Under the pieces are notes generated by a model that was given only the letters and a program-made list of their open reading frames with translations, was not told the DNA's origin and ran no database searches. From Actinomycetota bacterium (GTDB lineage Bacteria; Actinomycetota; Rubrobacteria; Rubrobacterales; Rubrobacteraceae): DNA of 41,589 nt. Position 1 is the first letter of the stretch; every line of letters begins with the position of its first letter. Below, piece after piece: positions 8,973 to 37,208 of the stretch. Location of the stretch: assembly GCA_004563715.1 (NCBI GenBank), contig SIRX01000119.1:1-41589 (forward strand), written 5' to 3'. The position numbers were made by a program, and so were the translations under genes.

Positions 8973-8980
8973 CCCGGTGA

Positions 8981-11149: not shown

Positions 11150-11159
11150 GGACCGCAAC

Positions 11160-12278: not shown

Positions 12279-12281
12279 CGC

Positions 12282-16458: not shown

Positions 16459-16470
16459 ATGAGGAGAAGC

Positions 16471-17297: not shown

Positions 17298-17389
17298 CGG
17301 CCATTTACCGGGGGCGTACGGGATGCTACTTTACGTATAGTGATCTAGGACATCATGCAGGCAGAGGGGAGGCCAGGGAGCGTGGGCGC

Positions 17390-18610
17390 ATGGTGAGGCG
17401 GTTGAGGAACCTGGGGCCGGGGTTGCTGGTGGCGGCGGCGTTTATCGGGCCGGGGACGGTGACGACGGCGAGCGTAGCGGGGGCGAGCACCGGGTACGCG
17501 TTGTTGTGGGCGCTGGCGTTCTCCATCTTCGCGGTGATAGTGCTCCAGGAGATGAGCGCCCGGCTCGGGATCGTGAGTCGGGAGGGTCTTGGGGAGGCGC
17601 TGCGCACCACCTTCGGCAGCCCGGTATTCAAGGTTGTGGCCGTGCTGCTGGTGGTCGCGGCGATAACCTTCGGCAACGCGGCGTTCGAGACGGGGAACAT
17701 AACGGGGGCGGCGCTGGGGCTGGAGGCCCTGCTCGGGCTCTCGACCCAGGTGTGGGCGGTTATCGTGGGGGCTGGGGCCTTCGCGCTGCTGGCCTCCGGG
17801 GCGTACAAGGTCATAGAGCGGGCGCTGGTGGCGATGGTGATCCTTATGAGCGTCGTGTTCGTGCTCACGGCGATCATCGTGCGGCCCAGCATCCCGGACA
17901 TCCTGGCGGGCCTCTTCGCCCCGAGCATCCCGCCCGGGGCGCTGCTCACGGCGGTCGCCCTCATCGGGACCACGGTGGTACCGTACAACCTCTTTCTGCA
18001 CGCCAGCTCCGTGCAGGAGAAGTGGTCCGAGGACGTGCCGACGGACGAGGCGCTCGCGGAGAGCCGCTTCGACGCGACGTTCTCGATCGTGTTGGGGGGC
18101 TTGATCACGCTGGCCGTAGTCGCGACCGCCGCCGGGGCGTTCTTCGAGCGGGGCATCGAGATCACGGACGCCGGCCAGATGGCCGAGCAACTCGAACCGC
18201 TGCTGGGTCCGGCGGCCCGGTACTTCTTCGCAATCGGGCTCCTGGCGGCGGGCCTGACGAGCGCGGTGACCGCCCCCCTGGCGGCGGCCTACGCCACCTC
18301 GGGCGCCCTGGGCTGGGAGCGCAACCTGGCCGGCTGGAAGTTCCGGGCGGTGTGGGCGACCATAATCATCGTCGGGACTACCTTCGCGGCCCTGGGTACG
18401 GAGCCGGTGACGGCCATCGTCTTCGCCCAGGCCGCCAACGGCGTCCTGCTCCCCGTAGTCGCGGCGTTTCTCCTGATCGTGGTCAACCGCAGCGACCTGA
18501 TGGGCGAGTTCAAGAACAAGGTGGTGGGCAACATCCTGGGCGGCCTGGTCGTGCTGGTCGCCACCGGACTCGGCTTGCGCCTGATCCTCTCGGCCTTCGG
18601 GGTGCTCTGA
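17390..18610 (+). CDS. NRAMP-family (YcsG-like) membrane transporter with altered metal-site motifs
   Basis: A 406-residue polytopic inner-membrane protein with about 11 hydrophobic helices and the overall NRAMP/SLC11 layout. Known metal-transporting members carry D-P-G-N in helix 1 and M-P-H in helix 6. Here these positions read G20-P-G-T23 ('AAFIGPGTVTTA') and V197-P-Y199 ('TVVPYNLFLH'), so the metal-ligating Asp, Asn and Met are missing. Substrate is therefore unlikely to be Mn2+ or Fe2+ by the known mechanism. The gene is directly coupled to HyuA (stop TGA overlaps the next ATG) and follows a YcsI-like gene, as ycsG does in Bacillus. Uptake of an organic compound such as 5-oxoproline is my inference. 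Confidence 0.78.
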   Translation: MVRRLRNLGPGLLVAAAFIGPGTVTTASVAGASTGYALLWALAFSIFAVIVLQEMSARLGIVSREGLGEALRTTFGSPVFKVVAVLLVVAAITFGNAAFETGNITGAALGLEALLGLSTQVWAVIVGAGAFALLASGAYKVIERALVAMVILMSVVFVLTAIIVRPSIPDILAGLFAPSIPPGALLTAVALIGTTVVPYNLFLHASSVQEKWSEDVPTDEALAESRFDATFSIVLGGLITLAVVATAAGAFFERGIEITDAGQMAEQLEPLLGPAARYFFAIGLLAAGLTSAVTAPLAAAYATSGALGWERNLAGWKFRAVWATIIIVGTTFAALGTEPVTAIVFAQAANGVLLPVVAAFLLIVVNRSDLMGEFKNKVVGNILGGLVVLVATGLGLRLILSAFGVL

Positions 18611-20586: not shown

Positions 20587-22129
20587 CGGCCGGCTAGACC
20601 CCGTAACCCTCTCGGTGCTGGCGAGCGCTCTCTCCGGGGCGGCGGAGGAGATGGGGGCGGTACTCATCCGGGGCGCCTACTCCTCCAACATCAAGGAGCG
20701 GCGCGACTGCTCCACCGCCCTCTTCGACGCCCGGGGCCAGATGGTGGCCCAGGCCGAGCACATCCCGGTACACCTGGGAGCCATGCCCGAGGCGGTGGCG
20801 GCGGTCATGGAGCGCGACCCCGAGCCCGGTGACGTTTACGCCCTCAACGACCCCTACTCCGGCGGGACGCACCTGCCGGACATAACCCTCGTCTCGCCGG
20901 TGGCGCACGAGGAGGAGATTATCGGGTACGCCGTTACGCGGGCGCACCACTCGGACGTGGGCGGCATGAGCCCCGGCTCCATGCCGTCGAACTCGCGCGA
21001 GATCTACCAGGAGGGCATCATCATCCCGCCCGTCCGGCTCGTCCACGAGGGCGAGTACGTGGACGAGATACTCGACCTGATCCTCGCCAACGTCCGCACG
21101 CCCGACCTGCGGCGCGGCGACCTGCGGGCCCAGATCGCGGCCAACAACCTGGCCCAGACCCGCCTCTCCGAGCTGATCGAGCGTCGGGGCCGGGATACCG
21201 TGCTCACCGCTTTCGAGGAGGTCATCGCCTACACCGAGCGCCGCACCCGCGAGGCGATCCGGGAGCTGCCCGACGGCGAGTACAGTGCAGAGAGTGAGAT
21301 CGAGGGCGACGGCGCCAGCGACGAGGACATACCCACAAAGGTCACCGCTACCATCGAAGGTGACGAGATCCGGCTAGACTTCTCCGGTACCTCCGGCGCC
21401 GTGGCGGGCAACGTGAACTGCCCGCTGGCCGTCACCCGCTCCGCCTGCTACTTCGCCCTGCGGGTCCTGCTCCCCGGGGACGTGCCGGCCAACGCCGGCA
21501 CCTACGCCCCCCTCGACATCCACGCCCCCGAGGGCAGCCTGGTAAACGCCGAGAGCCCCTCGGCGGTCGTGGCGGGCAACGTCGAGACCAGCCAGCGGGT
21601 CGCGGACACCATCATCGCCGCCTTCTCGGAGGCCACGGACCTCGTCGCGGGCGGTCAGGGCACGATGAACAACCTCATAATCGGCGGGTCCGGCAACGGA
21701 GGCTGGACCTACTACGAAACCATCGGCGGCGGCCAGGGCGCGAGCAAGAAGGCCGACGGCCCCTCCGGCGTCCACGTCGGCACGTCCAACACCCTCAACA
21801 CCCCGATAGAGGCCCTGGAGCTGGAGTACCCGATGCGCGTCGAGCGTTACGAGCTGCGCTACGGCTCCGGCGGCGGGGGCGCCCACCGCGGCGGCGACGG
21901 CATCGTCCGCTCCGTGCGCGTCCTGGAGCCCGCCAGCCTCTCGCTTCTCACCGACCGCCGGCGCCACGGGCCGCACGGCGTGGGCGGCGGAGAACCCGGC
22001 GCACCCGGCCGCAACCTCCTGAACGACGAGGAGCTGCCACCGAAGGCCAGCCGGGAACTGGAGGAGGGCGACGTGGTCACGGTCGAGACGCCCGGCGGCG
22101 GCGGGTACGGCAGCCCTGGAGGGGGGTAA
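20579..22129 (+). CDS. hyuB: Hydantoinase/oxoprolinase B subunit
   Basis: This 516-residue protein is the partner of HyuA. It contains 'VTLSVLASALSGAAEEMGAVLIRGAYS', 'ERRDCSTALFDARGQMVAQAEHIPVHLG', 'NDPYSGGTHLPDITL' and 'AVVAGNVETSQRVADTI' (quoted in parts). The C-terminus is the typical Gly-rich 'TVETPGGGGYGSPGGG'. The B subunit forms the heteromeric complex that carries out ATP-dependent ring opening or carboxylation. Its ATG lies 8 bases inside hyuA, and the order matches the usual hyuAB arrangement. It is the last gene of this plus-strand operon; the next gene converges on it 30 bases away. Confidence 0.88.
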   Translation: MSNGRLDPVTLSVLASALSGAAEEMGAVLIRGAYSSNIKERRDCSTALFDARGQMVAQAEHIPVHLGAMPEAVAAVMERDPEPGDVYALNDPYSGGTHLPDITLVSPVAHEEEIIGYAVTRAHHSDVGGMSPGSMPSNSREIYQEGIIIPPVRLVHEGEYVDEILDLILANVRTPDLRRGDLRAQIAANNLAQTRLSELIERRGRDTVLTAFEEVIAYTERRTREAIRELPDGEYSAESEIEGDGASDEDIPTKVTATIEGDEIRLDFSGTSGAVAGNVNCPLAVTRSACYFALRVLLPGDVPANAGTYAPLDIHAPEGSLVNAESPSAVVAGNVETSQRVADTIIAAFSEATDLVAGGQGTMNNLIIGGSGNGGWTYYETIGGGQGASKKADGPSGVHVGTSNTLNTPIEALELEYPMRVERYELRYGSGGGGAHRGGDGIVRSVRVLEPASLSLLTDRRRHGPHGVGGGEPGAPGRNLLNDEELPPKASRELEEGDVVTVETPGGGGYGSPGGG

Positions 22130-24012: not shown

Positions 24013-25122
24013 CTACACGACCACCTCCGCCATCTCATCTATGAGGGCGCGCTGGAACTCGACCACCCGCGGGTCTGGCTGCTGGGCCGCGAAGAGCTCC
24101 TCGAAGGGATCCTCCACGGCCGTGCGCGCGCCGCTCAGTTCCTCGACGACCGCGAGCCCGCAGAAGGGCACGGTGGACTCAGCGTAGCCGCCCTCGTGCA
24201 CGGCGACGAGGCGTCCGCCGCAGAGGACTTCTGCGGCCTCCAACAAGAGGCGGGTCATCTGGCGGTAGGACTCGCCGTAGAGCATCTGGCGCGCCAGGGG
24301 GTCGGCGGCGTTGGCGTCCAGGCCGCTGGCGATAATGACCAGCTCCGGCCCGAAGCGCTCCAGGGCGGGCACCACGATGCGCCGCAGCGCGTACAGGTAG
24401 GTCTCGTGGCCGCTGCCGGGCGGCAGCGGCACGTTTGCGTTGTAGCCTGCTCCCGCCCCCGCGCCGCGCTCCTCCACGTTCCCGCTGCCGGGCGGGAAGC
24501 AGTTCTCCTGATGCATGGAGATCGTGAGCACGTCCGGCCGCTCGTAGTAGATGGACTGCGTCCCGTTGCCGTGGTGGACATCCCAGTCGAGCACGGCGAC
24601 CTTCTCCACCCCGGATCCGGCCCTCGCGGCCTCTATGGCTATGGGGATGTTGGCCAGCAGGCAGAAGCCCATCGCCGAGTCGGGCAGGCAGTGGTGGCCC
24701 GGGGGCCGGGAGAGCGAGTAGGCGTTGCGGTAGATGCCGGAGAGCACGTCGGAGACGGCGCGTTTGGCGAGCCCGGCGGAGAGCTTGGCGATCTCGTAGC
24801 TGCCCGCTCCGAAGGGGGCGAAGAGCCCCTCCTCACCGCCGCCAGCGTCGCTGGCGGCCTTGAAGCGCTCCAGGTACTCTCGGGTGTGCACCCGCAGCAG
24901 GTCCTCCTCGGTGGCCTCCGGGGCCGAGAGCTGGGCGACCTGGTTGCCCAGGCCCGAGACGTCCAGGAGGGCCTTGAAGCGGCGCTTGGTCTCGGGCGAC
25001 TCGCCGTGTCCGCCGCCGGCCGGGGGCTGCAGCCAGCCGCCTACTGGCATGACCAGCACCGCCTCGCCGGTGGTGTGCCAGAGGCACCGCTCGTCGTGGT
25101 AGAAAGCCGTATCGTAGTCCAT
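24013..25122 (-). CDS. Class II histone deacetylase-like / acetylpolyamine amidohydrolase
   Basis: The 369-residue cytoplasmic zinc hydrolase has every arginase-deacetylase fold motif. These are RPPGHH (His143/His144), 'MGFCLLANIPIA', the zinc ligands Asp181 and His183 in 'DWDVHHGNGTQ', Asp269 in 'SGLDANAADPL', and 'HEGGY' near the C-terminus. Bacterial members remove acetyl groups from acetylpolyamines or other N-acyl amines, or from proteins. The ATG at 25122 follows GAGAGGAG. It lies 30 bases downstream of the PLP decarboxylase gene on the same strand, which suggests joint action on amines. Confidence 0.87.
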   Translation of the reverse strand: MDYDTAFYHDERCLWHTTGEAVLVMPVGGWLQPPAGGGHGESPETKRRFKALLDVSGLGNQVAQLSAPEATEEDLLRVHTREYLERFKAASDAGGGEEGLFAPFGAGSYEIAKLSAGLAKRAVSDVLSGIYRNAYSLSRPPGHHCLPDSAMGFCLLANIPIAIEAARAGSGVEKVAVLDWDVHHGNGTQSIYYERPDVLTISMHQENCFPPGSGNVEERGAGAGAGYNANVPLPPGSGHETYLYALRRIVVPALERFGPELVIIASGLDANAADPLARQMLYGESYRQMTRLLLEAAEVLCGGRLVAVHEGGYAESTVPFCGLAVVEELSGARTAVEDPFEELFAAQQPDPRVVEFQRALIDEMAEVVV

Positions 25123-25152: not shown

Positions 25153-26634
25153 CTACGGGAGCTCCGCCGGTCGCTCTCCGAACTCCCGGGCTACCTCCAG
25201 CACGTACTCCACCTCGTCGGGGGTAGTTCGGAAGTTGACAAAGCACACCCGCAGGCAGCCCCGGCCGTCCACGGCGGCGGGGGCGAGAAAGACACGCCCG
25301 TCGCCCTGCAAAGCGCGGGCCAACCGCAAGTTGTGCTCGTCGAGGTCCGCGACGCCGGACGGGGCGTGCCGGAAGCAGACGGTCGAGAGCATCGGCTCGT
25401 GCAGCAGCTCGAAGTCGGGGGCGGCACGCAGCAGCTCCGTGAGCCGCCGGGCGTTGGCGAGGGTGCGCTCGATCCAGGCCCGGTACTGGGCGGCGCCGTG
25501 GACGCGGAAGGCCATCCACAGCCGCAGGGAACGGAACGGGCGCGAGTACTCCAGCGTCTGGTCCACGGGGTTGACGACGTCGCCTTCGTGCAACAAGTAC
25601 CGTTCCTCGTGGCCGAACGCCGCCCGCAGCCGGTCCGCCTCGCGCAGCATGACGACGCTGCAGCTCTTCTGCACCCCGAGCCACTTGTGGGCGTCGAGGG
25701 TCGCGGAGTCCGCACGGTCGAGGCCGGTGAACAGGGCCGCCGTGGACGGGACCGCCGCCGCGGGGAGCCCGTAGGCGCCGTCCACGTGCAGCCAGACGCC
25801 ACGGTCCCCGTAGGAGGCGCAAACGCCGGCTATCTCGTCCAGCGGATCCACGGCCCCCGTGAGCGTGGTGCCGGCGGTCGCCACCACCGCCACAGGCGTA
25901 ACGCCGGCCGCGATGTCGGCGGCGAGCGCCCGGTCGAGCGCCTCGGGGCGCATGCGACGACGGGAATCGATGGGGATACGCCGGACGGCGGCGCTGCCGA
26001 GGCCACAGACCTCGACGGCCCGGACAACCGAGTAGTGGGCCTCATCGGAGCAGTAGACCGCCGCCCGTCGGCCCCCTATTCCCTCGGCGCGCGAGCCGGG
26101 TAACGCCTTCTCGCGGGCGGCGAGGAGCGCGGTGAGGTTGGAGATCATACCGCCGCTGGTGAAGGAGCCCTCGGCGAGCGGGAAGCCCACGAAGTCCGCG
26201 ACCCAGCGCAGGGATTGCTGCTCGACCAGGTCCGCCCCGCCGGCGGAGACGGCGAGGTTGGCGTCGTAGGTCGCGGCGAGGGCGGAGGCGAGGACCCCGA
26301 CCTCCAGGCCGGTGGAGCCGATGTAGCCGAGGTAGAGCGGGCGGGAGGGCGAGATGCTGGCGTCGAGGATCCGGGCCGCGTCGCCCAGAGCCGCTTCGGC
26401 GTCGCCGGCCTCCTCGGGGAGCGGCGAGCCCAGGCGGGTGGCCAGATCCTCGTCGAGCTCCGGTTCGGAGGCCCGCGGCCGGTCGAAAGAGGCCCAGGCG
26501 TCGCAGATCACGCGCTCCAGGTCGGCCAGCACACCCTCCCGGTCGGCGAGCGCGGGGAGGTCGGCCTGCTCGTGCTGCGGCGCGGAGCCCATCCGCGCCG
26601 CGTTTGCTGGCCGCGAGCCGCGGTTGCGGCTCAT
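25153..26634 (-). CDS. Group II PLP-dependent (aromatic-L-amino-acid type) decarboxylase
   Basis: A 493-residue fold-type I PLP enzyme. 'FTSGGMISNLTALLAAREKAL' binds the cofactor phosphate, and 'WLHVDGAYG' supplies the Asp that contacts the pyridine nitrogen. Lys317 in 'DAHKWLGVQKSC' forms the Schiff base. The family makes amines from aromatic amino acids, glutamate or diaminobutyrate; the exact substrate cannot be read off. The ATG at 26634 is favoured because it overlaps, as ATGA, the stop of a 25-codon upstream ORF with a strong ribosome site. A TTG at 26658 and an ATG at 26592 are alternatives. Confidence 0.82.
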   Translation of the reverse strand: MSRNRGSRPANAARMGSAPQHEQADLPALADREGVLADLERVICDAWASFDRPRASEPELDEDLATRLGSPLPEEAGDAEAALGDAARILDASISPSRPLYLGYIGSTGLEVGVLASALAATYDANLAVSAGGADLVEQQSLRWVADFVGFPLAEGSFTSGGMISNLTALLAAREKALPGSRAEGIGGRRAAVYCSDEAHYSVVRAVEVCGLGSAAVRRIPIDSRRRMRPEALDRALAADIAAGVTPVAVVATAGTTLTGAVDPLDEIAGVCASYGDRGVWLHVDGAYGLPAAAVPSTAALFTGLDRADSATLDAHKWLGVQKSCSVVMLREADRLRAAFGHEERYLLHEGDVVNPVDQTLEYSRPFRSLRLWMAFRVHGAAQYRAWIERTLANARRLTELLRAAPDFELLHEPMLSTVCFRHAPSGVADLDEHNLRLARALQGDGRVFLAPAAVDGRGCLRVCFVNFRTTPDEVEYVLEVAREFGERPAELP

Positions 26635-26708
26635 GACAGCCCGCCGGGGCACAGGCAAGCACCATTCCCCGTCTGCGGCAGGTTGGAAGGTGGGCTTGCG
26701 TGAGACAT
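26631..26708 (-). CDS. 25-codon leader ORF coupled to the PLP decarboxylase
   Basis: The ATG at 26708 is preceded by AAAGGAG, 5 bases away, the best ribosome site in this stretch. The peptide starts MSHASPPSNLPQTGNG and ends CLCPGGLS. Its TGA overlaps the decarboxylase ATG in ATGA. It could be a translational-coupling leader. Alternatively it is the displaced true N-terminus of the decarboxylase after a frameshift. No run of regulatory codons for a single amino acid is evident. Confidence 0.45.
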   Translation of the reverse strand: MSHASPPSNLPQTGNGACLCPGGLS

Positions 26709-26722
26709 CGACGCTCCTTTAC

Positions 26723-27648
26723 TCAGCTCGAACTCCGCTCGGTTTGCGTCCCGGTATCCTCCTTTGCCGCCGTGGCCTGGACGGCGGCCACGCCCTCGCC
26801 GATACCGGCGTAGACCGCGGGCCTGCGCGACCGCATAGCGACCGCGACCACGAAACCTACGACGCCCGCCCCGAGCACCAGGACCGGGAACACCACGGCC
26901 AGCGGGTTCAGAGGAGCACCCGGCGTCGAGGTCAACAGTACGTTGAAGTTGAGCACGATCAGGACCAGGACGACCGCCAGCACGAGGCCCGCAACGAGCG
27001 GGGCGATCAGGCGCGCGAAGCCTCCCTCGTTGCGCGCGTCGTTCCGGAAGAAAGCGACGACCGAGAACGACAGCAGCGTCAGCAGCGCCACTACGCCCAA
27101 AGCGCCGGTATTGGTGAGCCAGGTAAAGAGCGTGAGGATCGGGTCCAGGCCGAGGACGGCGAAGACCGTGACGACCACGAAGGCCAGGGCGGTCTGCGTC
27201 AGAGACGCCGCGTAAGGGGCCTGCTTCCGCGGATGCACCTGTCCCAAGACGCGGGGCAGGACCCGCTCCCGGCCGAGCGAGAAGATGTACCGGGCCACCG
27301 CGTTGTGGAAGGACAGCAGCGCGGCGAACAGGCTCGTGGCGAAGAAGAGCACTCCTACCTCCGCGAACCACGCGCCGAGCCTCTCGGCCCCCGCGACGAA
27401 CAGCACGGTCGTGGGGTCCGGCGCGCCTCCCGACGTGAAGCCCGCCTCCGCCAGCCGGTCCGGGTCCGTGATCGTAGCGGGACCGGCCGCCACGGCGAGG
27501 AGCCAGCTAGAGACGGCGTAGAAGACGGAGATGGTGCCCGCCGCGATGTAGCGACGATAAAGAACACGATCGAGGGAACACCCATGGCCCCCCGGTGCAG
27601 ACGCTCTCCGGTTTCCGCCGTTTGCGCGGAAGTCTGTCCCTGGCTCAT
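26723..27648 (-). pseudogene. APC-family amino-acid permease with a large internal deletion and frameshift
   Basis: The first 32 codons from the ATG at 27648 encode the usual APC N-terminus ('RLHRGAMGVPSIVFFIVA'). Near 27553-27565 the sequence jumps to what is normally residue about 230-240 of the family ('RRYIAAGTISVFYAVSSW') in a different frame. It then continues for about 275 residues to the normal C-terminus, through 'FHNAVARYIFSLGRERVLP' and several membrane helices. A full-length relative has about 480-510 residues, so roughly 200 residues (helices 1-6) are gone. The gene is probably dead unless the C-terminal half is made from an internal start at 27493. Confidence 0.78.
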
Positions 27649-27726
27649 GATTCGTTACCTGGCTTTCTTCTATTTCGGTGGGTGGCAGCCATCAGAAATT
27701 TCGGAAAGGTGGGCACCGCACCCCCT

Positions 27727-28995
27727 TCAATCCCGAGCCCTGACAAGACCGCACCAGTCCCTCACGAACAGCCCGAGCACCTGCGCGGTCTCGACGACCG
27801 AGCTTAGAGCTACGCGCTCGTCTATGCCGTGGATGTTCTCCGCACGCGGCCCGAAGCAGACGGCCGGTATCCCCGCCCGCACGAAGTGCCTCGCGTCCGT
27901 GGTGGCGGTCGTGGCCTCCAGGCCGGGGCGCTCCCCGTGCAGCCGGGCGTACGCCTCGGAGAGCGCGTGGACCACCGGCTCGTCTTCGTCCACCACCGAC
28001 CCCTCGCAGGCGAACCCGTCGTAGCGCACGCGCGGCGGGTTCCCGGCGAGCCGGGGCGAGGCTTCCGCTGCTTCGGCGACCGCCTCTTCGACCAGGGCGC
28101 GCATCTCCTCCGGGGACTGCCCCGGGTTGAGTCCGATGCGGCACGAGAGGGTGCAGGTCGCCGCGACGGTCGAGGGCCAGTCGCCGCCGGAGATCACGCC
28201 GGGGTTCAAATTGATGGGGTGCTCGAACGCGTCGAAGGGGGGCGGCGGGTCCTCGTTGAGCCGCTTCTCCAGCTTGCGGAGCGCCGCGAGCACCTCGTAG
28301 GCGGCCTCGATAGCGTTGAAGCCGAGCCGGCTGGCGCGGGCCGCGTGCGCCGGAACGCCGGAGATCTCGACGTGGAACCAAAGCACGCCGACCTGGGCCA
28401 CGGTCAGGTGGTCGGGATGCGGCTCGGGGATGACGCACGCCTCGGCGCGAGCCCCGTCCAGCAGGCACTGCAACGCCCCGTGGCCGGTGCACTCTTCCTC
28501 TACGACTGACTGGAGCTGCACCGGGGCCGCCGGGGCGTACCCGGCGCGCTTGAGCGCCCGCACCGCGCCGGTCATGGCGGCGAGGCCGGCCTTCATGTCC
28601 CCGGCCCCGCGCCCGTAGATCCAGTCGCCGGCGCGCACCGCCTCGTAGGGCGAGTGCGACCACAGCTCCCCGGCGGCCGGCGGCACGACGTCGATGTGGC
28701 CGTTGAGGATCAGGGACTGTCCCCCCTCGCCGCCCGCCGGCCAGTCGGCGACGAGGTTGCGCTTGCCTTTTACGTCCCAGGAGAACGGGGAAGCACCGTC
28801 GGCGGCGCGCAGGGCTCCGGCGTCGAGCGGGACGCTGCGCGGCGCGAGGCCGCAGTCGGCGAAGGCTTCCTCCATTATCTGCTGGCCCGCCTCCTCGTCG
28901 CCGAGGACGGTCGGGGCTTCGACGAGGCGGACGAGCACTCTTTCCATCCACCCCTGCTCGGCGGCGACCGCGGCGAGGACTGTTTCGTCGTTCAT
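27727..28995 (-). CDS. M20-family (ArgE/DapE-type) deacylase / peptidase
   Basis: This 422-residue cytoplasmic zinc amidohydrolase has the M20 motifs: 'LILNGHIDVVP' (zinc His and Asp), 'GRGAGDMKAGLAAM' (bridging Asp), and 'QSVVEEECTGHGAL' (catalytic Glu-Glu). The lid domain contains 'VPAHAARASRLGFNAIEA'. Members hydrolyse N-acyl amino acids, dipeptides or carbamoyl compounds. The ATG at 28995 overlaps the aldehyde dehydrogenase stop as ATGA, so it is the last cistron of the coupled operon. In this setting it could remove a gamma-glutamyl or other acyl group from a pathway intermediate, which is inference. Confidence 0.85.
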   Translation of the reverse strand: MNDETVLAAVAAEQGWMERVLVRLVEAPTVLGDEEAGQQIMEEAFADCGLAPRSVPLDAGALRAADGASPFSWDVKGKRNLVADWPAGGEGGQSLILNGHIDVVPPAAGELWSHSPYEAVRAGDWIYGRGAGDMKAGLAAMTGAVRALKRAGYAPAAPVQLQSVVEEECTGHGALQCLLDGARAEACVIPEPHPDHLTVAQVGVLWFHVEISGVPAHAARASRLGFNAIEAAYEVLAALRKLEKRLNEDPPPPFDAFEHPINLNPGVISGGDWPSTVAATCTLSCRIGLNPGQSPEEMRALVEEAVAEAAEASPRLAGNPPRVRYDGFACEGSVVDEDEPVVHALSEAYARLHGERPGLEATTATTDARHFVRAGIPAVCFGPRAENIHGIDERVALSSVVETAQVLGLFVRDWCGLVRARD

Positions 28996-30458
28996 CCGGT
29001 GCTGCCTTCGAGGATCTGGAGGGCCTTCAGGTCGGAGTAGAAGTCCAGGGCGTAGTCGCCACCCTCGCGCCCGATGCCGGAGATGCCCGTGCCGCCGAAC
29101 GGGGCGGTCAGGTCGCGCACCAGGAAGGTGTTGACCCAGACCACGCCCGCGCGCACCCGGCGGCCCACGCGGTCGGCCCGGCCGAGGGAGCCCGTGTAGA
29201 CGATGCCCGAGAGGCCGTACTCGGTGGAGTTGGCGAGGGCGACCGCCTCGTCCTCGCCGGCGAAGGTCTGGAAGGTGAGGACGGGGCCGAAGACCTCCTT
29301 CTGGACGATCTCGGCGTCGTTGGAGTTCGGCTTGATGAGGGTGGGCTCGTAGAAGAGCGAGCCCACGGGCGAGCAGCGGCCGCCGCGCACGATCCTGTGT
29401 CCCTCGGCGCGGGCGCGCTCGACGAAGCCCTCGACGCGCTCCAGGTGGTCGGGGTGGATGAGCGGCGAGAGGGTGGTCGAGTCCTCGCGCGGGTCGCCGG
29501 GGACGTGCTCGTCGGCGAAGCGGTGAAACCTCTCCAGAAAGTCGTCGGCGACGGACTCCTGCACGAGCAACCGCGTGCCGGCGAGGCAGACCTGCCCGGC
29601 GTCGTCGTACTGGCCGGCCGCTTTGCGCGCGGCGGCGTCCAGGTCGGCGTCCTCGAAGACTATCAAGGGTCCCTTGCCGCCGAGCTCGGCGGTGAACGGC
29701 ACCAGGTTCTTGGCCGCAGACACCCCGATCCGGCGCCCCGTCTCCGGCGAGCCCGTGAACGAGACGCGCCGCAAGAGCGGGTGCGCGACCAGTGCAGCTC
29801 CGGCCTCCTCCCCGACCCCCTGGACGACGTTGAACACGCCCGGCGGGAAGCCGGCCCCGGCCACGAGGTCGGCGAGCAGCGAGCAGGAGAGGGGCGACCA
29901 CTCGGCGGGCTTGAGGACGACGGTACAGCCGGCGGCCAGCGCAGGAGCGGTCTTCCAGGTCGAGAGCATGAACGGGGCGTTCCACGGCGTGATCACGGCC
30001 GCCGAGCCGGCGGGCATCCGCTGCACCCGGTTCCACGTCCCCTGCGAGCGCCAGTCGCGCTCCTCGTAGGCGGTCGCCAGGTCCGCGTAGGAGCGGTAGT
30101 TGCGCGCCCCGCGCGAGATCACGCGCGCCCGCAAGGAGCGCAGCAGCATCGCCATGTCCATACACTCGACGGCGGCCAGCCTCTCGACGTTGGCGTCGAT
30201 AAGGCCGGCGAGCCGGTGCAGGTAGGGCGCGCGGCCGGCCGGTCCGAGGTCGGCCCACGCCGGGAAGGCGTCGCGGGCGGCGCGCACCGCCGCGTCCACC
30301 TCGGCCTCGCCGGCGCGCGAGACCTCGGCGATGACCTCGCCCGTGATCGGGGAAATGTCCTCGAAGCGCCGGTCGCTCGCCACCCGCTCCCCCCCGATGA
30401 AGTGGTCGGGTGAGACCTCGATGCCCGCGACCCGGATGCGCCCGGCGATAGCGGTCAT
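28992..30458 (-). CDS. Aldehyde dehydrogenase (hydroxymuconic-semialdehyde dehydrogenase-like)
   Basis: A 488-residue NAD(P)-dependent aldehyde dehydrogenase. 'VITPWNAPFMLSTWK' and 'VLKPAEWSPLS' bind the cofactor. 'FTAELGGKGP' carries the general-base Glu, and Cys291 in 'DDAGQVCLAGTR' is the nucleophile. The opening 'HFIGGERVASDRRFEDISPITGE' (in parts) and the neighbouring ring-cleavage dioxygenase favour the HpaE/XylG branch, which oxidises semialdehydes from meta cleavage. It overlaps both neighbours by 4 bases (ATGA at each end), showing tight translational coupling. Confidence 0.88.
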   Translation of the reverse strand: MTAIAGRIRVAGIEVSPDHFIGGERVASDRRFEDISPITGEVIAEVSRAGEAEVDAAVRAARDAFPAWADLGPAGRAPYLHRLAGLIDANVERLAAVECMDMAMLLRSLRARVISRGARNYRSYADLATAYEERDWRSQGTWNRVQRMPAGSAAVITPWNAPFMLSTWKTAPALAAGCTVVLKPAEWSPLSCSLLADLVAGAGFPPGVFNVVQGVGEEAGAALVAHPLLRRVSFTGSPETGRRIGVSAAKNLVPFTAELGGKGPLIVFEDADLDAAARKAAGQYDDAGQVCLAGTRLLVQESVADDFLERFHRFADEHVPGDPREDSTTLSPLIHPDHLERVEGFVERARAEGHRIVRGGRCSPVGSLFYEPTLIKPNSNDAEIVQKEVFGPVLTFQTFAGEDEAVALANSTEYGLSGIVYTGSLGRADRVGRRVRAGVVWVNTFLVRDLTAPFGGTGISGIGREGGDYALDFYSDLKALQILEGSTG

Positions 30459-31255
30459 ACGAGCTCCTTGACGGTCTGGAGGTCGTCCACGGTGTAGCCG
30501 AACGTGAAGCGGTAGCCCCGGTCGATCTTCACGGGGGCGAGCGTGTCGTGCTCCTCGCCGGGGGCCGGGTACAGAGTAAGTGTGGCAGGACCGGCGAATA
30601 CTCTGGATATCGCGCGGTCGCGGCTCACGGAGCGGACGAGCTCGTGCACCTGCGGGTCGTCGTGGCGGCCGGCGGCGAGGCGCGGGAAGTGGCGCACGTT
30701 GACGATGGGCGGGGCGTTGTGGCGCGGGCCGTCCTCGGCCTCGCCCTCGATGGTGAGGGTCATGTCGGCGATGGCGCGGCCGCGCGCGGAGCAGGTCGCG
30801 CCGTGGCGGCCGCCGGGCCGCAGTCCCGGGTCTGCCGGCAACTCCAGGCCGAAGGTGCGGGTCATCCAGACCGAGCCCAGCTTCTTGGGGAAGCCCTGGA
30901 TCCAACCTCGAGCCAGCGCGAAGTCCTGGTCCACCCAGATAAAGGGGCAGGTCGTCACCTCCTCGCCGTCGAGCAAGGCGTTGACCACGACGAAGAACTC
31001 CCGGTAGTGGGACCGGATCGGGTCTACCAGCTCGTCCCCGCCCTCGGAGCACGACTGCCAGTCGGCGAACACCGCGGCGCAGCGGCTGGGGTCGGGGTGC
31101 GGGTCTAACCCGTCGGGCAATACGGCGCGGACGGCGTCGGGGTCGGCCCAGTAGTCCACGACGAGGAAGTCGCCGACGTAGTGCCACGGGGGCGGCGGGA
31201 CGAGGCTGGCCCGGCCGGTCCGGGTGCGGGGGATGGAGTAGCCGCGCAGGCTCAT
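30455..31255 (-). CDS. Acetoacetate decarboxylase-family protein
   Basis: The 266-residue protein contains the acetoacetate decarboxylase core. 'WIQGFPKKLGSVWMTRTFG' includes the paired lysines that form the Schiff base in the clostridial enzyme, and 'DQDFALARG' precedes them. Relatives include true acetoacetate decarboxylases and aldolase-dehydratases acting on other oxo acids. In an operon with extradiol cleavage, aldehyde dehydrogenase and FAH-family genes, decarboxylation of an oxalocrotonate-like intermediate is a reasonable hypothesis. The start and stop both overlap adjacent genes by 4 bases. Confidence 0.8.
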   Translation of the reverse strand: MSLRGYSIPRTRTGRASLVPPPPWHYVGDFLVVDYWADPDAVRAVLPDGLDPHPDPSRCAAVFADWQSCSEGGDELVDPIRSHYREFFVVVNALLDGEEVTTCPFIWVDQDFALARGWIQGFPKKLGSVWMTRTFGLELPADPGLRPGGRHGATCSARGRAIADMTLTIEGEAEDGPRHNAPPIVNVRHFPRLAAGRHDDPQVHELVRSVSRDRAISRVFAGPATLTLYPAPGEEHDTLAPVKIDRGYRFTFGYTVDDLQTVKELV

Positions 31256-32175
31256 TTGTGGACCTCCTCTGGTAACGGCTGACCGAGCATCTCCAGGCTC
31301 TCCCGCTCGGAGGCGACGGCCGCCTCGTCGAAGCGGAAGTAGGAGCGGGGCGGCAGAGGACCCCAGGTGTTCGAGGAGAAGCGGTTGTCCGGCCAGCGGC
31401 GCGGCTCGTGGTCGGCCTCCAGCTGCTCCATGTCGCAGTAGAGCTCGACGAAGCACTCCTCCTCGACGATCCGCACGTAGGAGGCGATGTTGCCCCCGAT
31501 GCCGTGCCGCACCGGCCCCCAGCCGAGCCAGCGCCCGTGCCTCCCGAGGTGATCGAGGGCGACCCGCATCTGGCCGATGTCCACGACGTCGAAGGCGAGA
31601 TGGTGGAAGTGGGAGTAGCCCTTGTCCACGAGCGCCATGACGTGGTGGTCGCCGTTTACGTGGAACCACACGCCGCCGGCGCCGAGCCAGTCTGTCAGGC
31701 CCATGCCGAGCCCGCGCGTGTAGAACTCGACACCGGCCTGCATCTCGCCGGTAAGGAAGTTGACGTGCCCGAGCTTGCGGGGATGGCCGACGACCTGGTC
31801 GGTGGCCGCCCGCGCGTGTGGAACCCACCGCTCTCCGGGCTCCCGGTAGGGCATCACGAGCACCCCGTTGTCCTCCGGGTCTGAGAGACGCAGGCCGTCG
31901 TCTCGCTCCTCGTAGGCGATGCCGAGCCCATCGAAGTGGCGCCTCGCGTCGTCGAGCGAGCAGGAGCGGCGCAGTTCGTAGGCGACGTGCTCCAGGCCGG
32001 ACGCTTCGGCGGCGACCAACTCTAGAGAAAAAGGCTCGTCGTCGCAGGCGAGGCGGGCGCGGTGCTCGTCACGTTCCCGCTCGACGAGGCCGAACTGGAG
32101 GCGCCAGCGGCGGGCGGCGCCTTCCACGTCGGTGACGCGCAGGCTGACGTGGTCGATGCGGCGGAGGGAGATCAC
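31252..32175 (-). CDS. Type I extradiol ring-cleavage dioxygenase (VOC family)
   Basis: A 307-residue two-domain VOC protein with a full extradiol active site. Iron ligands are His137 ('KLGHVNF'), His191 or 192 ('HFHHLAFDV') and Glu244 ('FVELYCDME'). The catalytic second-sphere set is His177/178 ('NGDHHVM'), His224 and Tyr233 in 'GPVRHGIGGNIASYV'. This matches the catechol 2,3-dioxygenase/BphC family, which opens catechols next to the hydroxyls using Fe(II) and O2. Both ends overlap neighbours by 4 bases. The intact catalytic residues argue against a non-enzymatic VOC role. Confidence 0.88.
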   Translation of the reverse strand: MISLRRIDHVSLRVTDVEGAARRWRLQFGLVERERDEHRARLACDDEPFSLELVAAEASGLEHVAYELRRSCSLDDARRHFDGLGIAYEERDDGLRLSDPEDNGVLVMPYREPGERWVPHARAATDQVVGHPRKLGHVNFLTGEMQAGVEFYTRGLGMGLTDWLGAGGVWFHVNGDHHVMALVDKGYSHFHHLAFDVVDIGQMRVALDHLGRHGRWLGWGPVRHGIGGNIASYVRIVEEECFVELYCDMEQLEADHEPRRWPDNRFSSNTWGPLPPRSYFRFDEAAVASERESLEMLGQPLPEEVHK

Positions 32176-33416
32176 GCCGCCTCCACCCGCACCGGCATGC
32201 GCTTGATACCGTTGAAGAAGTTGGAGCGCAGGCGGTCCACCCGGCCGGCCAGCTCGACGGACCCCAGGCGTGGGATCAGCTCCTCGAACGCCACGCGGAC
32301 CTCCATGCGGGCGAGGTGGGCGCCGAGGCAGAAGTGCTTGCCCCCGGGGCCGAAGGTCATGTGCCCCTTGTGTCGGCTCGGCTCGCGGCCGACGTCGAAG
32401 GTGTCCGGGGCCTCGAAGAAAGCCTCGTCCCGGTTGCCCGAGGTGAACCAGGTTGTCACCTTGGCCCCGGCCGGTATCTTCGTCCCGGCCAGCCCGGTCT
32501 CCTGCGTCGTGGTGCGCCGGAAGTGGTGCACGGGGGTGGCCCAGCGGAGCATCTCCTCGGCGGCCGAGGCGTAGAGCGCGGGGTCACGGCGCAGCCGTTC
32601 GAGCTGGTCCGGGTTCTCGATGAGGGCGAGGAGGCCGTGGGTGATGGTGTGCCGGGTGGTCTCGTTGCCGGCGGTGGCCAGCAGCACGAAGTTCACGTCG
32701 TACTCGCGCTGGGTGAGCCCGCCGAAGGCGAGCTGGGTCACGATGTCGTCCTTGGGGTTGCGCCGCCGCTCCTCGGCGAGCGCGCGCCCGATCCTGAACA
32801 GCTCCAGCGAGGCCGGGCTGGAGAACGGCAAGAGGCGGTGCTCGGGCTTCTCCGGGGGCCGGGCGAACTCCGGGTCCTGGCCCCCGAGCAGGTGGTCCCC
32901 GAGCTCGATGATGTGGCGGCGCTCGTCCTGGGGGATGCCCAGGATGTCCGCGAAGACCTGCATCGGGATCTCCGAGGAGATCTCGCGCACGAAGTCGAAC
33001 TCGCCCTTGGGCAGCGCCTCGTCGATCACCCGGCGGGCGACCTCGCGCACCTGGTCCTCCCAGTCCTTGACGGCCCGGGGGGCGAAGCGGCCCTTGATGA
33101 GACGCCGGATCTCGTCGTGGCGCGGCGGGTCGAGGTCTATCATGGACTTGCGGGCCTCGATCTGGTCCGGCTCCAGGTCTTCGAGCGAGGTGCCCCCGAT
33201 CTCCGAGGAGTAGATGTCCCAGCGGCGGTGCACCTCCCGGATGTCCTCGTAGCGGCTTATGACCCAGAAGCCGGGGCCGTCGGGCTCGGGGTTGAAGAAC
33301 ACGGGCGCCTCGCGCCGGAGGGTACGGAACCACCCGTGCGGTACCCGCTCCACGAAGGCGTCGGGGTTGGAGAGGTCTATCTCCTCCAGCGAAACGGTCT
33401 CTCTGGTCTCGGTCAT
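32172..33416 (-). CDS. Cytochrome P450
   Basis: This 414-residue soluble bacterial P450 has the I-helix oxygen-binding motif 'LLATAGNETTRHT', the K-helix ExxR in 'EEMLRW', and the heme loop 'FGPGGKHFCLGAHLARME' with Cys363 as the iron ligand. Sequence style is that of actinobacterial CYPs acting on terpenoids, sterols or cyclic amines. The ATG at 33416 follows AGGAGG, which overlaps the stop of the preceding gene. No ferredoxin or ferredoxin reductase is encoded nearby, so the electron donors must come from elsewhere. In this operon it may hydroxylate the amine-bearing substrate before ring cleavage. Confidence 0.92.
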   Translation of the reverse strand: MTETRETVSLEEIDLSNPDAFVERVPHGWFRTLRREAPVFFNPEPDGPGFWVISRYEDIREVHRRWDIYSSEIGGTSLEDLEPDQIEARKSMIDLDPPRHDEIRRLIKGRFAPRAVKDWEDQVREVARRVIDEALPKGEFDFVREISSEIPMQVFADILGIPQDERRHIIELGDHLLGGQDPEFARPPEKPEHRLLPFSSPASLELFRIGRALAEERRRNPKDDIVTQLAFGGLTQREYDVNFVLLATAGNETTRHTITHGLLALIENPDQLERLRRDPALYASAAEEMLRWATPVHHFRRTTTQETGLAGTKIPAGAKVTTWFTSGNRDEAFFEAPDTFDVGREPSRHKGHMTFGPGGKHFCLGAHLARMEVRVAFEELIPRLGSVELAGRVDRLRSNFFNGIKRMPVRVEAA

Positions 33417-33427: not shown

Positions 33428-35488
33428 CTAGAGGTGGTGGAGGTACTCGGCGATCTCCCAGTCCGAGACCCACGTCCGGTGCCGCTCGGCCTCGAACCGC
33501 TTCATCGTGAGGAAGGTATCCACGATCTGGGGCCCCATCGCCTCCCGCAACACCTCGTCGGCCTCCAGCGCGTCCAGCGCCGCCTCCAGGGTGGCGGGCA
33601 GTTGTCCGCCGGCGGCGTCTTCCGGGAGGGTGTAGGCGTCGCCGCCGACCGGCGGGCCGAGCGGCAGCCTCTCGCGCAGGCCGTGCAGTCCGGCGAAGAG
33701 GATGGCGGCGGTCGCCAGGTACGGGTTCGCGCTCCCGTCGCCCACGCGCACCTCGGCCCTCGTGGCCCCGCCCCGCTCGGGCGGGATGCGCACGAACGCC
33801 GTCCGGTTGTCCCAGCCCCAGTTGGCGTGGGTGGGAGCCAGCGAGTCCGGCACGAGCCGCCGGTAGGCGTTGACGGTCGGGTTCAGGAAGGCCGTGAGGC
33901 CGCGGGCGTGAGCGAGTATACCGCCGACGAAGTGGCGCATCTTCCCGGAGACGCCGTCCGCGTCGGCGTCGTCAGCGAAGGCGTTCTCACCGTCCTGGCC
34001 TAGCGAGAAGTGGAAGTGGAAGCCGGAGCCGCCCTGGTCGTTGAACGGCTTGCCCATGAACGTGGCGATGAGGCCGTGCATGGCGGCCACGTCCTTGACG
34101 GCGCCCTTGAGGCGGAAGGCCCGGTCGGCGGCGGTCAGGGCGTCGGCGTGGTGAAGGTTGATCTCGTACTGCGAGTTCATGTACTCGTGGTTGGCCGCGA
34201 AGGTGCCCATCCCGAGGCCGGAGAGGTCCTCGGCGATCTTGCGCACGATGCCGCGCGGGTCGGCCTGCGGGCCTACCGTGTAGACCATGCTCAGGTTGTC
34301 CACGTAGCGCCGCACGCCGTTGACCGCTGCGGGGTCGCGCTCGCAGAGGAAGAACTCCAGCTCCGGGCCCACGACCGGCGCCAGCCCGAGCTCCTCGCAG
34401 GCGGCCACGGCGCGGCGTACCGCGCCCCGCGGGTCGGCGGGTGGTGCGTGATCCCCAACCGGGCGCAGGTCTGCGATGCAGCACGCCAGGCCCGGCTCCC
34501 ACGGGACCATCGTCACCGTGGAGAGGTCGGGGAAGGCCACGAGGTCGGGGTAGCCCTCCTCGCCTCCCACGACGGGGGTGTGGCGCAGGTCGGTGCCCAT
34601 TACCGCCGAGCAGAAGGCGAGCCCGTGCTCCAGGGCGCGGTCGAACTCGCCGATGGGCACGTCCTTGCCCCGCACCACGCCGTGCAGGTCCGGGTAGATC
34701 ACGCGTACGGAGGTAACCGAGCCGTCGGACAGCTCGGGGGGCTTCTCTACGGGTTTCTCCTGTTCGATCATTGCATCTTCCTTCCCGCCGGTCGCACCGG
34801 CTGCTCTTCCTTCGCGGTGGACTTCCACGCTGGCCGCGAACGCGTCGAAGAAGCGGTAGGCCGCTTCCCTGGAGGCCCTCTCACGCTCCGGGGGTCCGCC
34901 GAGCAGCTCCGCGCCGTCTTCTATGCCGAGCGCTGACAGACGCTCGGTGTCCATCTCCGCCCACCGGGAGACGATCTCCACGGTGCTCTCGGGATGGAAC
35001 TGCACCCCGAGGTGCGGACCGAACCGGAACGCCTGCACGGCGTCTGTGGTGCGTGCAATCTCCTCGGCGCCGGGCGGCGTCGTAAACCGCTCGTAGTGCC
35101 ACTCCAGCCACGGGCCGGGCGGCACGGTCTCCGGGTCATCGGTCTCTATCTCGCGCCATCCCAGCTCCGGCTGGGGCGAAACCTCCACCCGCCCGCCGAG
35201 CACGGCGGAGAGCACCTCCCCCCCGAAGCACAGCCCGAGTACCGGGACGTCTTTCTCGACCGCGGCCCGTATCAAGTCGAGCTCCTGTACCACCGAAGGC
35301 TCGTGTGTGTCGTTTGGCCCGTAAGGGGACCCTAGCGACGCGACAAAGGAGTATTTTTCCGGGTCGGGGGCGGGCAACCCGTTGTACGAGTGGTTCACTT
35401 CGTATGGTAGACCCCGCTCGTCCAGCCACTCGGCGAGCAACCCGGGCGGCGTGTTCTCTTCGTGCTGGCGGATCAGGACCGGCTTCAA
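33428..35488 (-). CDS. Fusion protein: class I glutamine amidotransferase domain + glutamine synthetase-like domain
   Basis: A single 686-residue frame joins two enzymes normally made separately. Residues 1 to about 205 form a class I amidotransferase with nucleophile Cys87 ('GLCFGGE'), His165 and Glu167 ('GVQFHPEST'). From about 250 to the end is a type III/PuuA-like glutamine synthetase. It carries 'YPDLHGVVRGKDVP', 'GPELEFFLCE', 'NHEYMNSQYEINL', 'GGSGFHFHFSLG' and 'GDGSANPYLATAAIL'. Separate GS-like/amidotransferase pairs make and hydrolyse gamma-glutamyl amines in putrescine (PuuA/PuuD) and aniline (AtdA1/AtdA2) catabolism. The TTG start overlaps the FAH stop (TTGA). Met240 follows GGAAGGAAG, so the GS part may also be made separately. 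Confidence 0.88.
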   Translation of the reverse strand: MKPVLIRQHEENTPPGLLAEWLDERGLPYEVNHSYNGLPAPDPEKYSFVASLGSPYGPNDTHEPSVVQELDLIRAAVEKDVPVLGLCFGGEVLSAVLGGRVEVSPQPELGWREIETDDPETVPPGPWLEWHYERFTTPPGAEEIARTTDAVQAFRFGPHLGVQFHPESTVEIVSRWAEMDTERLSALGIEDGAELLGGPPERERASREAAYRFFDAFAASVEVHREGRAAGATGGKEDAMIEQEKPVEKPPELSDGSVTSVRVIYPDLHGVVRGKDVPIGEFDRALEHGLAFCSAVMGTDLRHTPVVGGEEGYPDLVAFPDLSTVTMVPWEPGLACCIADLRPVGDHAPPADPRGAVRRAVAACEELGLAPVVGPELEFFLCERDPAAVNGVRRYVDNLSMVYTVGPQADPRGIVRKIAEDLSGLGMGTFAANHEYMNSQYEINLHHADALTAADRAFRLKGAVKDVAAMHGLIATFMGKPFNDQGGSGFHFHFSLGQDGENAFADDADADGVSGKMRHFVGGILAHARGLTAFLNPTVNAYRRLVPDSLAPTHANWGWDNRTAFVRIPPERGGATRAEVRVGDGSANPYLATAAILFAGLHGLRERLPLGPPVGGDAYTLPEDAAGGQLPATLEAALDALEADEVLREAMGPQIVDTFLTMKRFEAERHRTWVSDWEIAEYLHHL
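34771..34786 (-). promoter_or_regulatory. Internal ribosome site and ATG inside the amidotransferase-GS fusion
   Basis: On the minus strand GGGAAGGAAG (34786-34777) lies 5 bases before an in-frame ATG (34771-34769, Met240). That Met begins MIEQEKPVEKPPELSDG, just where a stand-alone GS-like protein of this type would start. The region upstream is a low-complexity linker rich in Gly and Ala. It looks like the start of a formerly separate gene. Confidence 0.5.
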
Positions 35489-36360
35489 CCGCCCGTCCTT
35501 CCTGCCTCTACCATCTTCTCAGCCTCTTCCTCGGAGACGGCCAGCGCGACGTGCAGCGTGTTGGCCGAGGTCTCGGGCTGCTCGCCCGGCCCCGACAGGT
35601 CCACCTCCCACTCCTCGACGGTGTTGCTGAGGCAGCCGATGCCGTCTATCTCGACCTCCACCACGTCTCCCGGCTGCATGGGCCGGGAGTTGGCCGGCGT
35701 GCCGGTCAGGAGCACGTCGCCGGGCTCCAGCGAGATCAGACGGCACACGTCCGCGAGCTGGTACGCCACGCCGAACAGTAGGTCGTCCGAGCCACCCTCC
35801 TGCACGACCTCGCCGTTGAGGTACGTCCGAAGGGTGAACGCCTCCGGGTCGAACTCCGAGGCGGGCACCACCTCCGGCCCGAGCGGCAGGAAGCCGTCCT
35901 GGCCCTTGACGCGCAGCATCGAGCCCCGGTCCGCGTGCCGGAAGTCATGCAACCCCACGTCGTTGGCGCACGTGTAGCCGGCCACGTAGTCGAGCGCCTC
36001 CTCCTCCGGCACGCCCTTCATGCGCCGCCCGACAACGACGGCCAGCTCCCCCTCGTAGTTGAGGAACCGCGTCCCCGCCGGACGCCGCACCGTACCCCGG
36101 TGCCCGTTCAGCGCCGTCGGGGGCTTCAGGAAGTACGAGGGCTGCGCCGGCGCCTTCGCGGCGTACTCCTCCACGCGGCTCCGGTAGGTCAGGTGGACCG
36201 CGAGGATCTTGGTCGGCTCGACCGGCGCGAGGTAATGCGCCTCCGCCTCGGGCAACCGCTCCCCCGACTCCAGCACGACCTCATCGCCCTCCCGCCAGCC
36301 CCACACCGGTGCGCCTCCGTACAGCACACGCAGCGCCCGACCATCCCCGATAGCTCCCAT
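35485..36360 (-). CDS. Fumarylacetoacetate hydrolase (FAH)-family protein, HpaG-like isomerase/decarboxylase/hydrolase
   Basis: The 291-residue protein has the FAH catalytic core. 'FLNYEGELAVVVG' provides two metal-binding Glu residues, 'ANDVGLHDFRH' an Asp, and 'VKGQDGFLPLGPEVV' the substrate/metal loop. 'GDVLLTGTPANSRPMQPGDVVEVEIDGIG' (in parts) closes the beta-roll. Family members hydrolyse acylpyruvates or decarboxylate and isomerise meta-cleavage products. The ATG at 36360 is preferred to the GTG at 36369 because of ribosome-site spacing. It is the first gene of the coupled operon; its stop overlaps the next start (TTGA). Confidence 0.87.
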   Translation of the reverse strand: MGAIGDGRALRVLYGGAPVWGWREGDEVVLESGERLPEAEAHYLAPVEPTKILAVHLTYRSRVEEYAAKAPAQPSYFLKPPTALNGHRGTVRRPAGTRFLNYEGELAVVVGRRMKGVPEEEALDYVAGYTCANDVGLHDFRHADRGSMLRVKGQDGFLPLGPEVVPASEFDPEAFTLRTYLNGEVVQEGGSDDLLFGVAYQLADVCRLISLEPGDVLLTGTPANSRPMQPGDVVEVEIDGIGCLSNTVEEWEVDLSGPGEQPETSANTLHVALAVSEEEAEKMVEAGRTGG

Positions 36361-36392
36361 AACAGACACCCCACAGTCCGATAAACCAGTTT

Positions 36393-36409
36393 ATGGATAC
36401 ATTATCCAT
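36393..36409. promoter_or_regulatory. Operator copy 1 (17-bp palindrome) over the catabolic-operon promoter
   Basis: ATGGATA-CAT-TATCCAT is a perfect 7-base-arm palindrome with a 3-base centre. It covers the -10 element of the minus-strand promoter. The same motif recurs 52 bases away at 36445-36461. Size and symmetry fit the dimeric GntR/FadR regulator encoded next door. Confidence 0.65.
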
Positions 36410-36479: not shown

Positions 36480-37208
36480 ATGACCCTCCCCTCTGGACAG
36501 CGGAAGGATGAGGACCACATCCGGGTAGATTCCGTCGTGGACCTCGCCTACGGGCGCATCCGGGACCTGGTCCTCAGCGGCGAGCTGGCGCCGGGGGCGC
36601 GGCTCGGGCAGGTGGAGCTGGCGGAGCGGTTCGGGATCTCGCGCACGCCGGTCCGCGAGGCGTTGCGGCGGCTGGCGGGCGAGGGGCTCGTGGACCCGCT
36701 CTCCAACCGGGGCTTCCGGGTTGCGGATCTCGGCCTCGACGCGGTCATGCGGCGTCTGGAGGTGCGGTCCATCCTGGAGCCGGGCATCGCCCGGCTGGCG
36801 GCGCGGCGCCGGAGCGAGCGCGACGTCGAGCGGTTACGGGGCGCGATCTCACGCGAGGAGCGGGCGCGGGACGGGATCGAGGCCCACGACGCCAGCCGCG
36901 ACTTCCACGTCGCGCTCGCGCGCGCCACCGGCAACGAGGAGATCGTGCGCGTCCTGGAGTCGCTGTGGCTCGTGGAGGTGGACCGGCGCCTCCTCGCCCG
37001 GCGCTCCGCCGAGTCGGACTGGCCGTCCGTGGACATCCGGGAGCACCGGGAGATAGCGACCGCCGTGGAAGAGGGCCGCGCCGAGGACGCCGGGCGGCTG
37101 ATGGAGGAGCACGTCAGCGGGGCCGTGCGCCACTGGGAACCCGAGTGGCGAGCCACCACGGACCGTCTGGACGGGGAGTCCGGACCCGGCGTCGCCGCGG
37201 GCCGGTGA
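36480..37208 (+). CDS. GntR-family transcriptional regulator, FadR/FCD subfamily
   Basis: The 242-residue protein has an N-terminal winged helix (residues about 18-80). Its recognition helix is 'LAERFGISRTPVREALRRLAGEGLV' (in parts), the GntR hallmark. A C-terminal all-helical FCD ligand domain follows, with 'DASRDFHVALARATGN' and 'REHREIATAVEEGRAEDAGRLMEEHV' (in parts), which carry the His and acidic residues that bind a metal and a carboxylate ligand. It is divergent from the catabolic operon, and a repeated palindrome lies in the 119-base gap. It is probably an autoregulated repressor released by a pathway substrate. Its stop is 2 bases from the convergent MFS gene. Confidence 0.9.
   Translation: MTLPSGQRKDEDHIRVDSVVDLAYGRIRDLVLSGELAPGARLGQVELAERFGISRTPVREALRRLAGEGLVDPLSNRGFRVADLGLDAVMRRLEVRSILEPGIARLAARRRSERDVERLRGAISREERARDGIEAHDASRDFHVALARATGNEEIVRVLESLWLVEVDRRLLARRSAESDWPSVDIREHREIATAVEEGRAEDAGRLMEEHVSGAVRHWEPEWRATTDRLDGESGPGVAAGR

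What the first reader, a model, noticed from the sequence alone, without database searches (positions are those of the whole stretch)
33428..35488. Amidotransferase and glutamine-synthetase domains fused in one polypeptide
Making and hydrolysing a gamma-glutamyl amide are opposing steps normally on two proteins. Both domains here keep their catalytic residues (Cys87/His165/Glu167, and the GS motifs). A fusion suggests channelling, or an amidotransferase acting as a safety valve that removes excess or wrong gamma-glutamyl amides. It could also feed ammonia to the GS site.
Basis: partly seen in the sequence, partly recalled or inferred. Interest (0 to 1): 0.75.

Follow-up and report, generated by a model that had tools for sequence, protein, structure and literature searches.

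The report
One-base accident joining two amine-catabolism genes
Two neighbouring genes, one that attaches glutamate to an amine and one that takes it off again, read as a single protein in this genome because of one extra base between them; nearly all relatives keep them as two genes, so this is most likely a recent, probably inconsequential joining (or a sequencing error) inside a known type of aromatic-amine breakdown pathway.

Summary
In detail: 35488-33428 (-) is one 686-aa open frame, a class I amidotransferase (GAT) followed by a glutamine-synthetase-like ligase, with catalytic residues kept. The designed-fusion reading is not supported. In 24 distinct relatives with the two genes side by side, 23 keep them separate, usually start-stop coupled with a Shine-Dalgarno just before the ligase start. 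The window differs by one extra base in that spacer (34779/34778), which puts the GAT frame onto the ligase frame. The ligase's own ATG (34771) and a weaker Shine-Dalgarno remain, so free ligase is probably still made. One Solirubrobacteraceae MAG shows a second one-ORF case. The ligase half has lost both ammonium-site acids of true glutamine synthetase (D50 to Cys293, E327 to Leu550), so it should glutamylate an organic amine. The pair resembles AtdA1/AtdA2 and NpaA1/NpaA2: make a gamma-glutamyl amide, and hydrolyse the excess. That safety-valve idea is already published, for separate proteins. The surroundings form a conserved actinobacterial operon (FAH hydrolase, GAT, ligase, P450, extradiol dioxygenase, ADC-like, HpaE-like dehydrogenase) with a P450 where the aniline operons have a Rieske dioxygenase. 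The operon's permease is broken in this genome. Sequencing error cannot be excluded without reads.

The parts
33428..35488 (-). single 686-aa open reading frame, GAT plus GS-like ligase (TTG start)
34801..35488 (-). class I amidotransferase half (Cys87, His165, Glu167); probable gamma-glutamyl-amide hydrolase of the AtdA2/NpaA2 role
   Evidence: Pfam; conserved triad in relatives; PDB relatives; function inferred
33428..34771 (-). GS-like ligase half, 447 aa from the internal ATG; D50 and E327 equivalents replaced by Cys293 and Leu550
34772..34786 (-). former intergenic spacer with Shine-Dalgarno (GGGAAGGAAGATGCA); one extra A at 34779/34778 compared with relatives (GGGAAGGA-GAGGAA etc.)
34769..34771 (-). 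internal ATG, the ligase start codon position in relatives
35485..36369 (-). FAH-family hydrolase (HpaG-like), first gene of the operon
32172..33416 (-). cytochrome P450, nearest solved relatives CYP125/CYP124
31252..32175 (-). extradiol ring-cleavage dioxygenase (HpaD/catechol 2,3-dioxygenase-like)
30455..31258 (-). acetoacetate-decarboxylase-family protein (MppR-like)
28992..30383 (-). aldehyde dehydrogenase, HpaE/2-hydroxymuconic-semialdehyde type
27727..28707 (-). M20-family peptidase/amidohydrolase downstream of the core operon
26726..27684 (-). remnant of the operon's amino-acid permease: about 630 nt of the middle missing and the frame changed
36393..36409 (.). palindrome ATGGATACATTATCCAT overlapping the operon promoter; probable GntR operator, conserved in relatives
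36480..37208 (+). divergent FadR-type GntR regulator

Best explanation
The locus is an operon for breakdown of an amine, probably aromatic, whose first steps work like AtdA1/AtdA2. The GS-like ligase attaches the gamma-carboxyl of glutamate to the amine at the cost of ATP. The operon's P450 then hydroxylates the masked ring, and the extradiol dioxygenase, HpaE-like dehydrogenase and FAH protein process the ring. The amidotransferase hydrolyses surplus gamma-glutamyl amide. Ancestrally the two genes were start-stop coupled; in this genome one extra base in the spacer removed the stop from the amidotransferase frame and joined the frames. The ribosome can then make a 686-aa two-domain protein, while the kept Shine-Dalgarno and ATG still give free ligase. 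The joining is recent and most likely neutral. Shown: one open frame, the one-base difference, two genes in nearly all relatives, residue replacements, conserved operon. Inferred: the reactions, the amine class, internal initiation, neutrality.
For: Junctions of close relatives differ from the window by one spacer base, with Shine-Dalgarno and start in the same place. 23 of 24 distinct relatives with adjacent genes have two genes, including all 9 others in the window's family. Loss of the D50 and E327 equivalents, plus extra residues next to the D50 position, is reported for gamma-glutamyl organic-amine synthetases. The gene order GAT-ligase-P450-dioxygenase-ADC-ALDH is conserved across Rubrobacter and Thermoleophilia. 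AtdA2/NpaA2 roles as published. Core enzymes are about as close to outgroups as those of relatives, so no general decay. AlphaFold gives two folded domains and a linker at 233-247 with pLDDT under 50.
Against: Neither activity has been tested. By sequence the ligase half is nearer to canonical archaeal/Bacillus GSI (E 1e-76) than to NpaA1 (8wwu, E 1e-46), so the substrate is not established. A second one-ORF case exists (L052/L059), which leaves room for some benefit. No reads are available to confirm the base.
Confidence: 0.6

Rival explanations
1. The extra base is a sequencing or assembly error and the living cell has two separate, coupled genes, as in its relatives.
For: One base is enough to explain the fusion. 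The genome is a 176-contig draft. The same operon also shows a broken permease in this assembly.
Against: In 113-126 orthologous frames (about 120 kb) compared with a complete relative, no other small frameshift specific to this genome was found; the other candidates that were inspected looked like an IS pseudogene in the relative, antisense or neighbour-gene effects. No long homopolymer lies at the site. The survey would not flag large deletions.
Confidence: 0.27
2. The fusion is a selected bifunctional enzyme: tethering the hydrolase to the ligase channels or limits the gamma-glutamyl amide.
For: Both active sites are intact. A second, independent one-ORF case exists in a Solirubrobacteraceae MAG. 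Hydrolase-ligase fusion has a precedent in FluG, amidohydrolase plus gamma-glutamyl ligase (PMC6478659).
Against: Both fused cases keep the internal Shine-Dalgarno and ATG. The fusion is absent from every close relative. Tethering a ligase to the enzyme that undoes its product would promote a futile cycle unless regulated (inference).
Confidence: 0.1
3. The amidotransferase half hydrolyses glutamine and feeds ammonia to the GS half.
For: Class I amidotransferases often do this for synthetase partners (general knowledge).
Against: The ligase half lacks both ammonium-site acids. Glutamine breakdown to rebuild glutamine is pointless. The gene sits in an amine-catabolic operon.
Confidence: 0.02

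Closest known systems
Aniline oxidation system AtdA1/AtdA2 (TdnQ/TdnT), Acinetobacter sp. YAA and Pseudomonas putida UCC22
   Same: GS-like gamma-glutamylanilide synthetase plus amidotransferase-like hydrolase that limits the amide, in an aromatic-amine operon (PMC4539516, PMC11335346)
   Different: Known genes are separate and use a Rieske dioxygenase; here a P450 is next to them. The window was not compared directly with AtdA1/AtdA2 sequences.
1-Naphthylamine pathway NpaA1/NpaA2 and the GoaS class, Pseudomonas sp. JS3066
   Same: GoaS features: loss of the catalytic Asp50 and the Glu flap residue, with a longer loop in the amine site
   Different: The ligase half matches NpaA1 (8wwu) only at E 1e-46, weaker than canonical GSI
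GlnA4 and PauA7 gamma-glutamyl-monoamine/ethanolamide synthetases
   Same: E327 replaced by a nonpolar residue and D50 not conserved (PMC6529630)
   Different: No amidotransferase fusion reported there; different operon context
FluG of Aspergillus (amidohydrolase fused to gamma-glutamyl ligase)
   Same: Hydrolase N-terminal to a GS-like ligase in one polypeptide (PMC6478659)
   Different: The FluG hydrolase is a TIM-barrel amidohydrolase, not a class I amidotransferase; that fusion is stable across many genomes

Membership tests
GoaS (gamma-glutamyl organic-amine synthetases) | GSI fold with metal, ATP and glutamate motifs kept | tested here: met
GoaS (gamma-glutamyl organic-amine synthetases) | Loss of the ammonium-site residues Asp50 and Glu327 of GSI | tested here: met
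   FDGSS to FCSAV (Cys293), GYEAP to DSLAP (Leu550)
GoaS (gamma-glutamyl organic-amine synthetases) | Longer hydrophobic loop near the D50 position (15th motif) | tested here: inconclusive
   A six-residue insertion there; motif not compared with NpaA1 residue by residue
GoaS (gamma-glutamyl organic-amine synthetases) | ATP-dependent glutamylation of an organic amine | not testable with these tools
   needs enzyme assay
AtdA2/TdnT-type gamma-glutamylanilide hydrolase | Class I amidotransferase with Cys-His-Glu triad | tested here: met
AtdA2/TdnT-type gamma-glutamylanilide hydrolase | Direct sequence orthology with AtdA2/TdnT | not tested
   no AtdA2/TdnT sequence was retrieved; the plasmid record H67 turned out to be another context
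Aniline dioxygenase operon (atd/tdn) | Two-component Rieske dioxygenase next to the GS-like and GAT genes | tested here: not met
   P450 in that place; no Rieske protein in the operon
Glutamine synthetase (ammonia-using GSI) | Asp50 and Glu327 present | tested here: not met
Fixed two-domain GAT-GS fusion family | One-ORF architecture conserved across a clade | tested here: not met
   1 of 24 distinct relatives besides the window

The most novel reading that the evidence does not exclude
A true bifunctional gamma-glutamyl-amide ligase/hydrolase that arose independently at least twice in Actinomycetota, with nested initiation giving both fused and free ligase, in a P450-type aromatic-amine pathway that has not been described.
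Probability: 0.1. Interest if true: 0.6.

Novelty: new variant of a known kind. Interest (0 to 1): 0.3.

Why it matters
The fusion itself is a clean example of how start-stop-coupled genes become one frame by a single base, and a warning against reading function into unique fusions in draft genomes. The larger point is the operon: a conserved actinobacterial gamma-glutamylation pathway with a P450 in place of the Rieske dioxygenase, which the literature searches here did not find described. Its amine substrate would be worth finding.

Tried and rejected
Search for the fusion in literature: only FluG. Search of 399 genomes of another phylum (that of Aliagarivorans) found only GS-like genes without the amidotransferase part, at 35-40% identity. 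Plasmid record H67 was followed as a possible tdnT and was not one. Glutamine-feeding to GS rejected on residues. General decay of the operon rejected for the core enzymes: identities to outgroups are similar to those of relatives, GAT slightly lower. The first protein alignment misplaced amidotransferase C-termini and was replaced. Papers on gamma-glutamyl tyramine/homoprotocatechuate or P450-linked gamma-glutamyl pathways were not found.

Full report
What is there. On the minus strand 35488-33428 is one open frame of 686 aa. It starts at a TTG that overlaps the stop of the FAH gene upstream. Residues 57-169 match GATase PF00117 and 351-682 match Gln-synt_C PF00120. The amidotransferase nucleophile Cys87 and His165/Glu167 are present and invariant among relatives. 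AlphaFold on an alignment of relatives gives two folded domains joined by a low-confidence stretch, 233-247 (mean pLDDT 76, pTM 0.58).

Why it is one frame. In relatives the amidotransferase gene ends at or just before the ligase start, in another frame, with a Shine-Dalgarno such as GGGAAGGAG immediately upstream. Lined up, the window reads GGGAAGGAAGATGCA|ATGATCG where relatives read, for example, GGGAAGGA-GAGGAA|ATGATCG: one base more. That base moves the amidotransferase frame onto the ligase frame, so the TGA inside the overlapping ATGA is no longer read. The ATG at 34771 remains, with predicted pairing to the 16S tail of -10.5 kcal/mol against -12.4 to -15.1 in the Rubrobacteraceae relatives tested (one more distant relative, L036, is weaker at -7.4). 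A few other internal start codons in the frame score as well as this one, so the energy alone does not prove use; the conserved position does the arguing.

How common. Ten of 40 genomes of the class sample carry the locus; the nine others have two genes. Over all distinct loci with the two genes adjacent, 23 are separate and one is a single frame: L052 = L059, a Solirubrobacteraceae MAG in another family. That case also keeps a Shine-Dalgarno and ATG before the ligase part.

Real base or error. Frames from 1.2 Mb of a complete relative were compared with 0.79 Mb of this genome. Among 113-126 orthologues no other small frameshift specific to this genome was found. That favours a real base but is not proof. 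The survey would not flag large deletions, and one was found by hand: the operon's amino-acid permease has lost about 630 nt from its middle with a change of frame, and no intact copy was found elsewhere in the genome. So this operon carries two unusual changes in this assembly.

What the ligase does. Metal, ATP and glutamate motifs of GSI are intact, but the Asp50 position is Cys293 and the Glu327 position is Leu550, in the window and all close relatives. Loss of these residues is reported for GlnA4/PauA7 (PMC6529630) and for NpaA1 and the GoaS class (PMC11335346; that text numbers the Glu-flap residue as Glu357). The ligase should therefore use an organic amine, not ammonium. By overall sequence it is still nearer to canonical GSI than to NpaA1, so it is a GoaS-like enzyme by active site rather than an NpaA1 orthologue.

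What the amidotransferase does. In aniline and 1-naphthylamine degraders a GAT-like protein is held to hydrolyse the gamma-glutamyl amide back to the amine and so limit a toxic intermediate; in the naphthylamine system it is not required for conversion (PMC4539516, PMC11335346). The same role is inferred here.

The operon. The order FAH, GAT, ligase, P450, extradiol dioxygenase, ADC-like, ALDH is conserved across Rubrobacter and Thermoleophilia, in most cases behind a divergent GntR gene. The promoter region carries a conserved palindrome, ATGGATACATTATCCAT in the window. Thermoleophilia versions insert a ferredoxin reductase between FAH and GAT, which suits a P450. The ALDH is nearest HpaE and the FAH protein resembles HpaG, pointing to meta-cleavage of a catechol with a side chain. 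A Streptomyces canus plasmid has ligase, P450, FAH, dioxygenase, ALDH and ADC together without the GAT. The amine is not identified.

Verdict. Interest is moderate to low for the fusion and somewhat higher for the operon.

Noticed in passing
window 26726-27684 (-): Amino-acid permease of the operon lacks about 630 nt of its middle and changes frame; intact versions exist in relatives L034, L036, L037, L039
   Followed up: partly
window 36393-36409 and near 36447: Conserved palindrome/half-site TGGATACATTAT overlapping the promoter between the GntR gene and FAH in Rubrobacteraceae relatives; probable GntR operator
   Followed up: partly
L052 839-2851: Second, independent single-frame GAT-GS case in a Solirubrobacteraceae MAG
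   Followed up: partly
window 25153-26658 (-) and 24013-25122 (-): PLP-dependent decarboxylase and histone-deacetylase-family (possibly acetylpolyamine-hydrolase-like) genes next to the operon; L046 (decarboxylase) and L036 (deacetylase) have similar genes nearby, possible hints to the amine
   Followed up: no
window 16459-22129 (+): D-glutamate cyclase, Nramp transporter, hydantoinase/oxoprolinase A and B genes; 5-oxoproline/glutamate handling near a gamma-glutamyl pathway
   Followed up: no
L077 (Streptomyces canus plasmid) 2049-12624: Same P450-type operon without the amidotransferase, on a mobilizable plasmid
   Followed up: no
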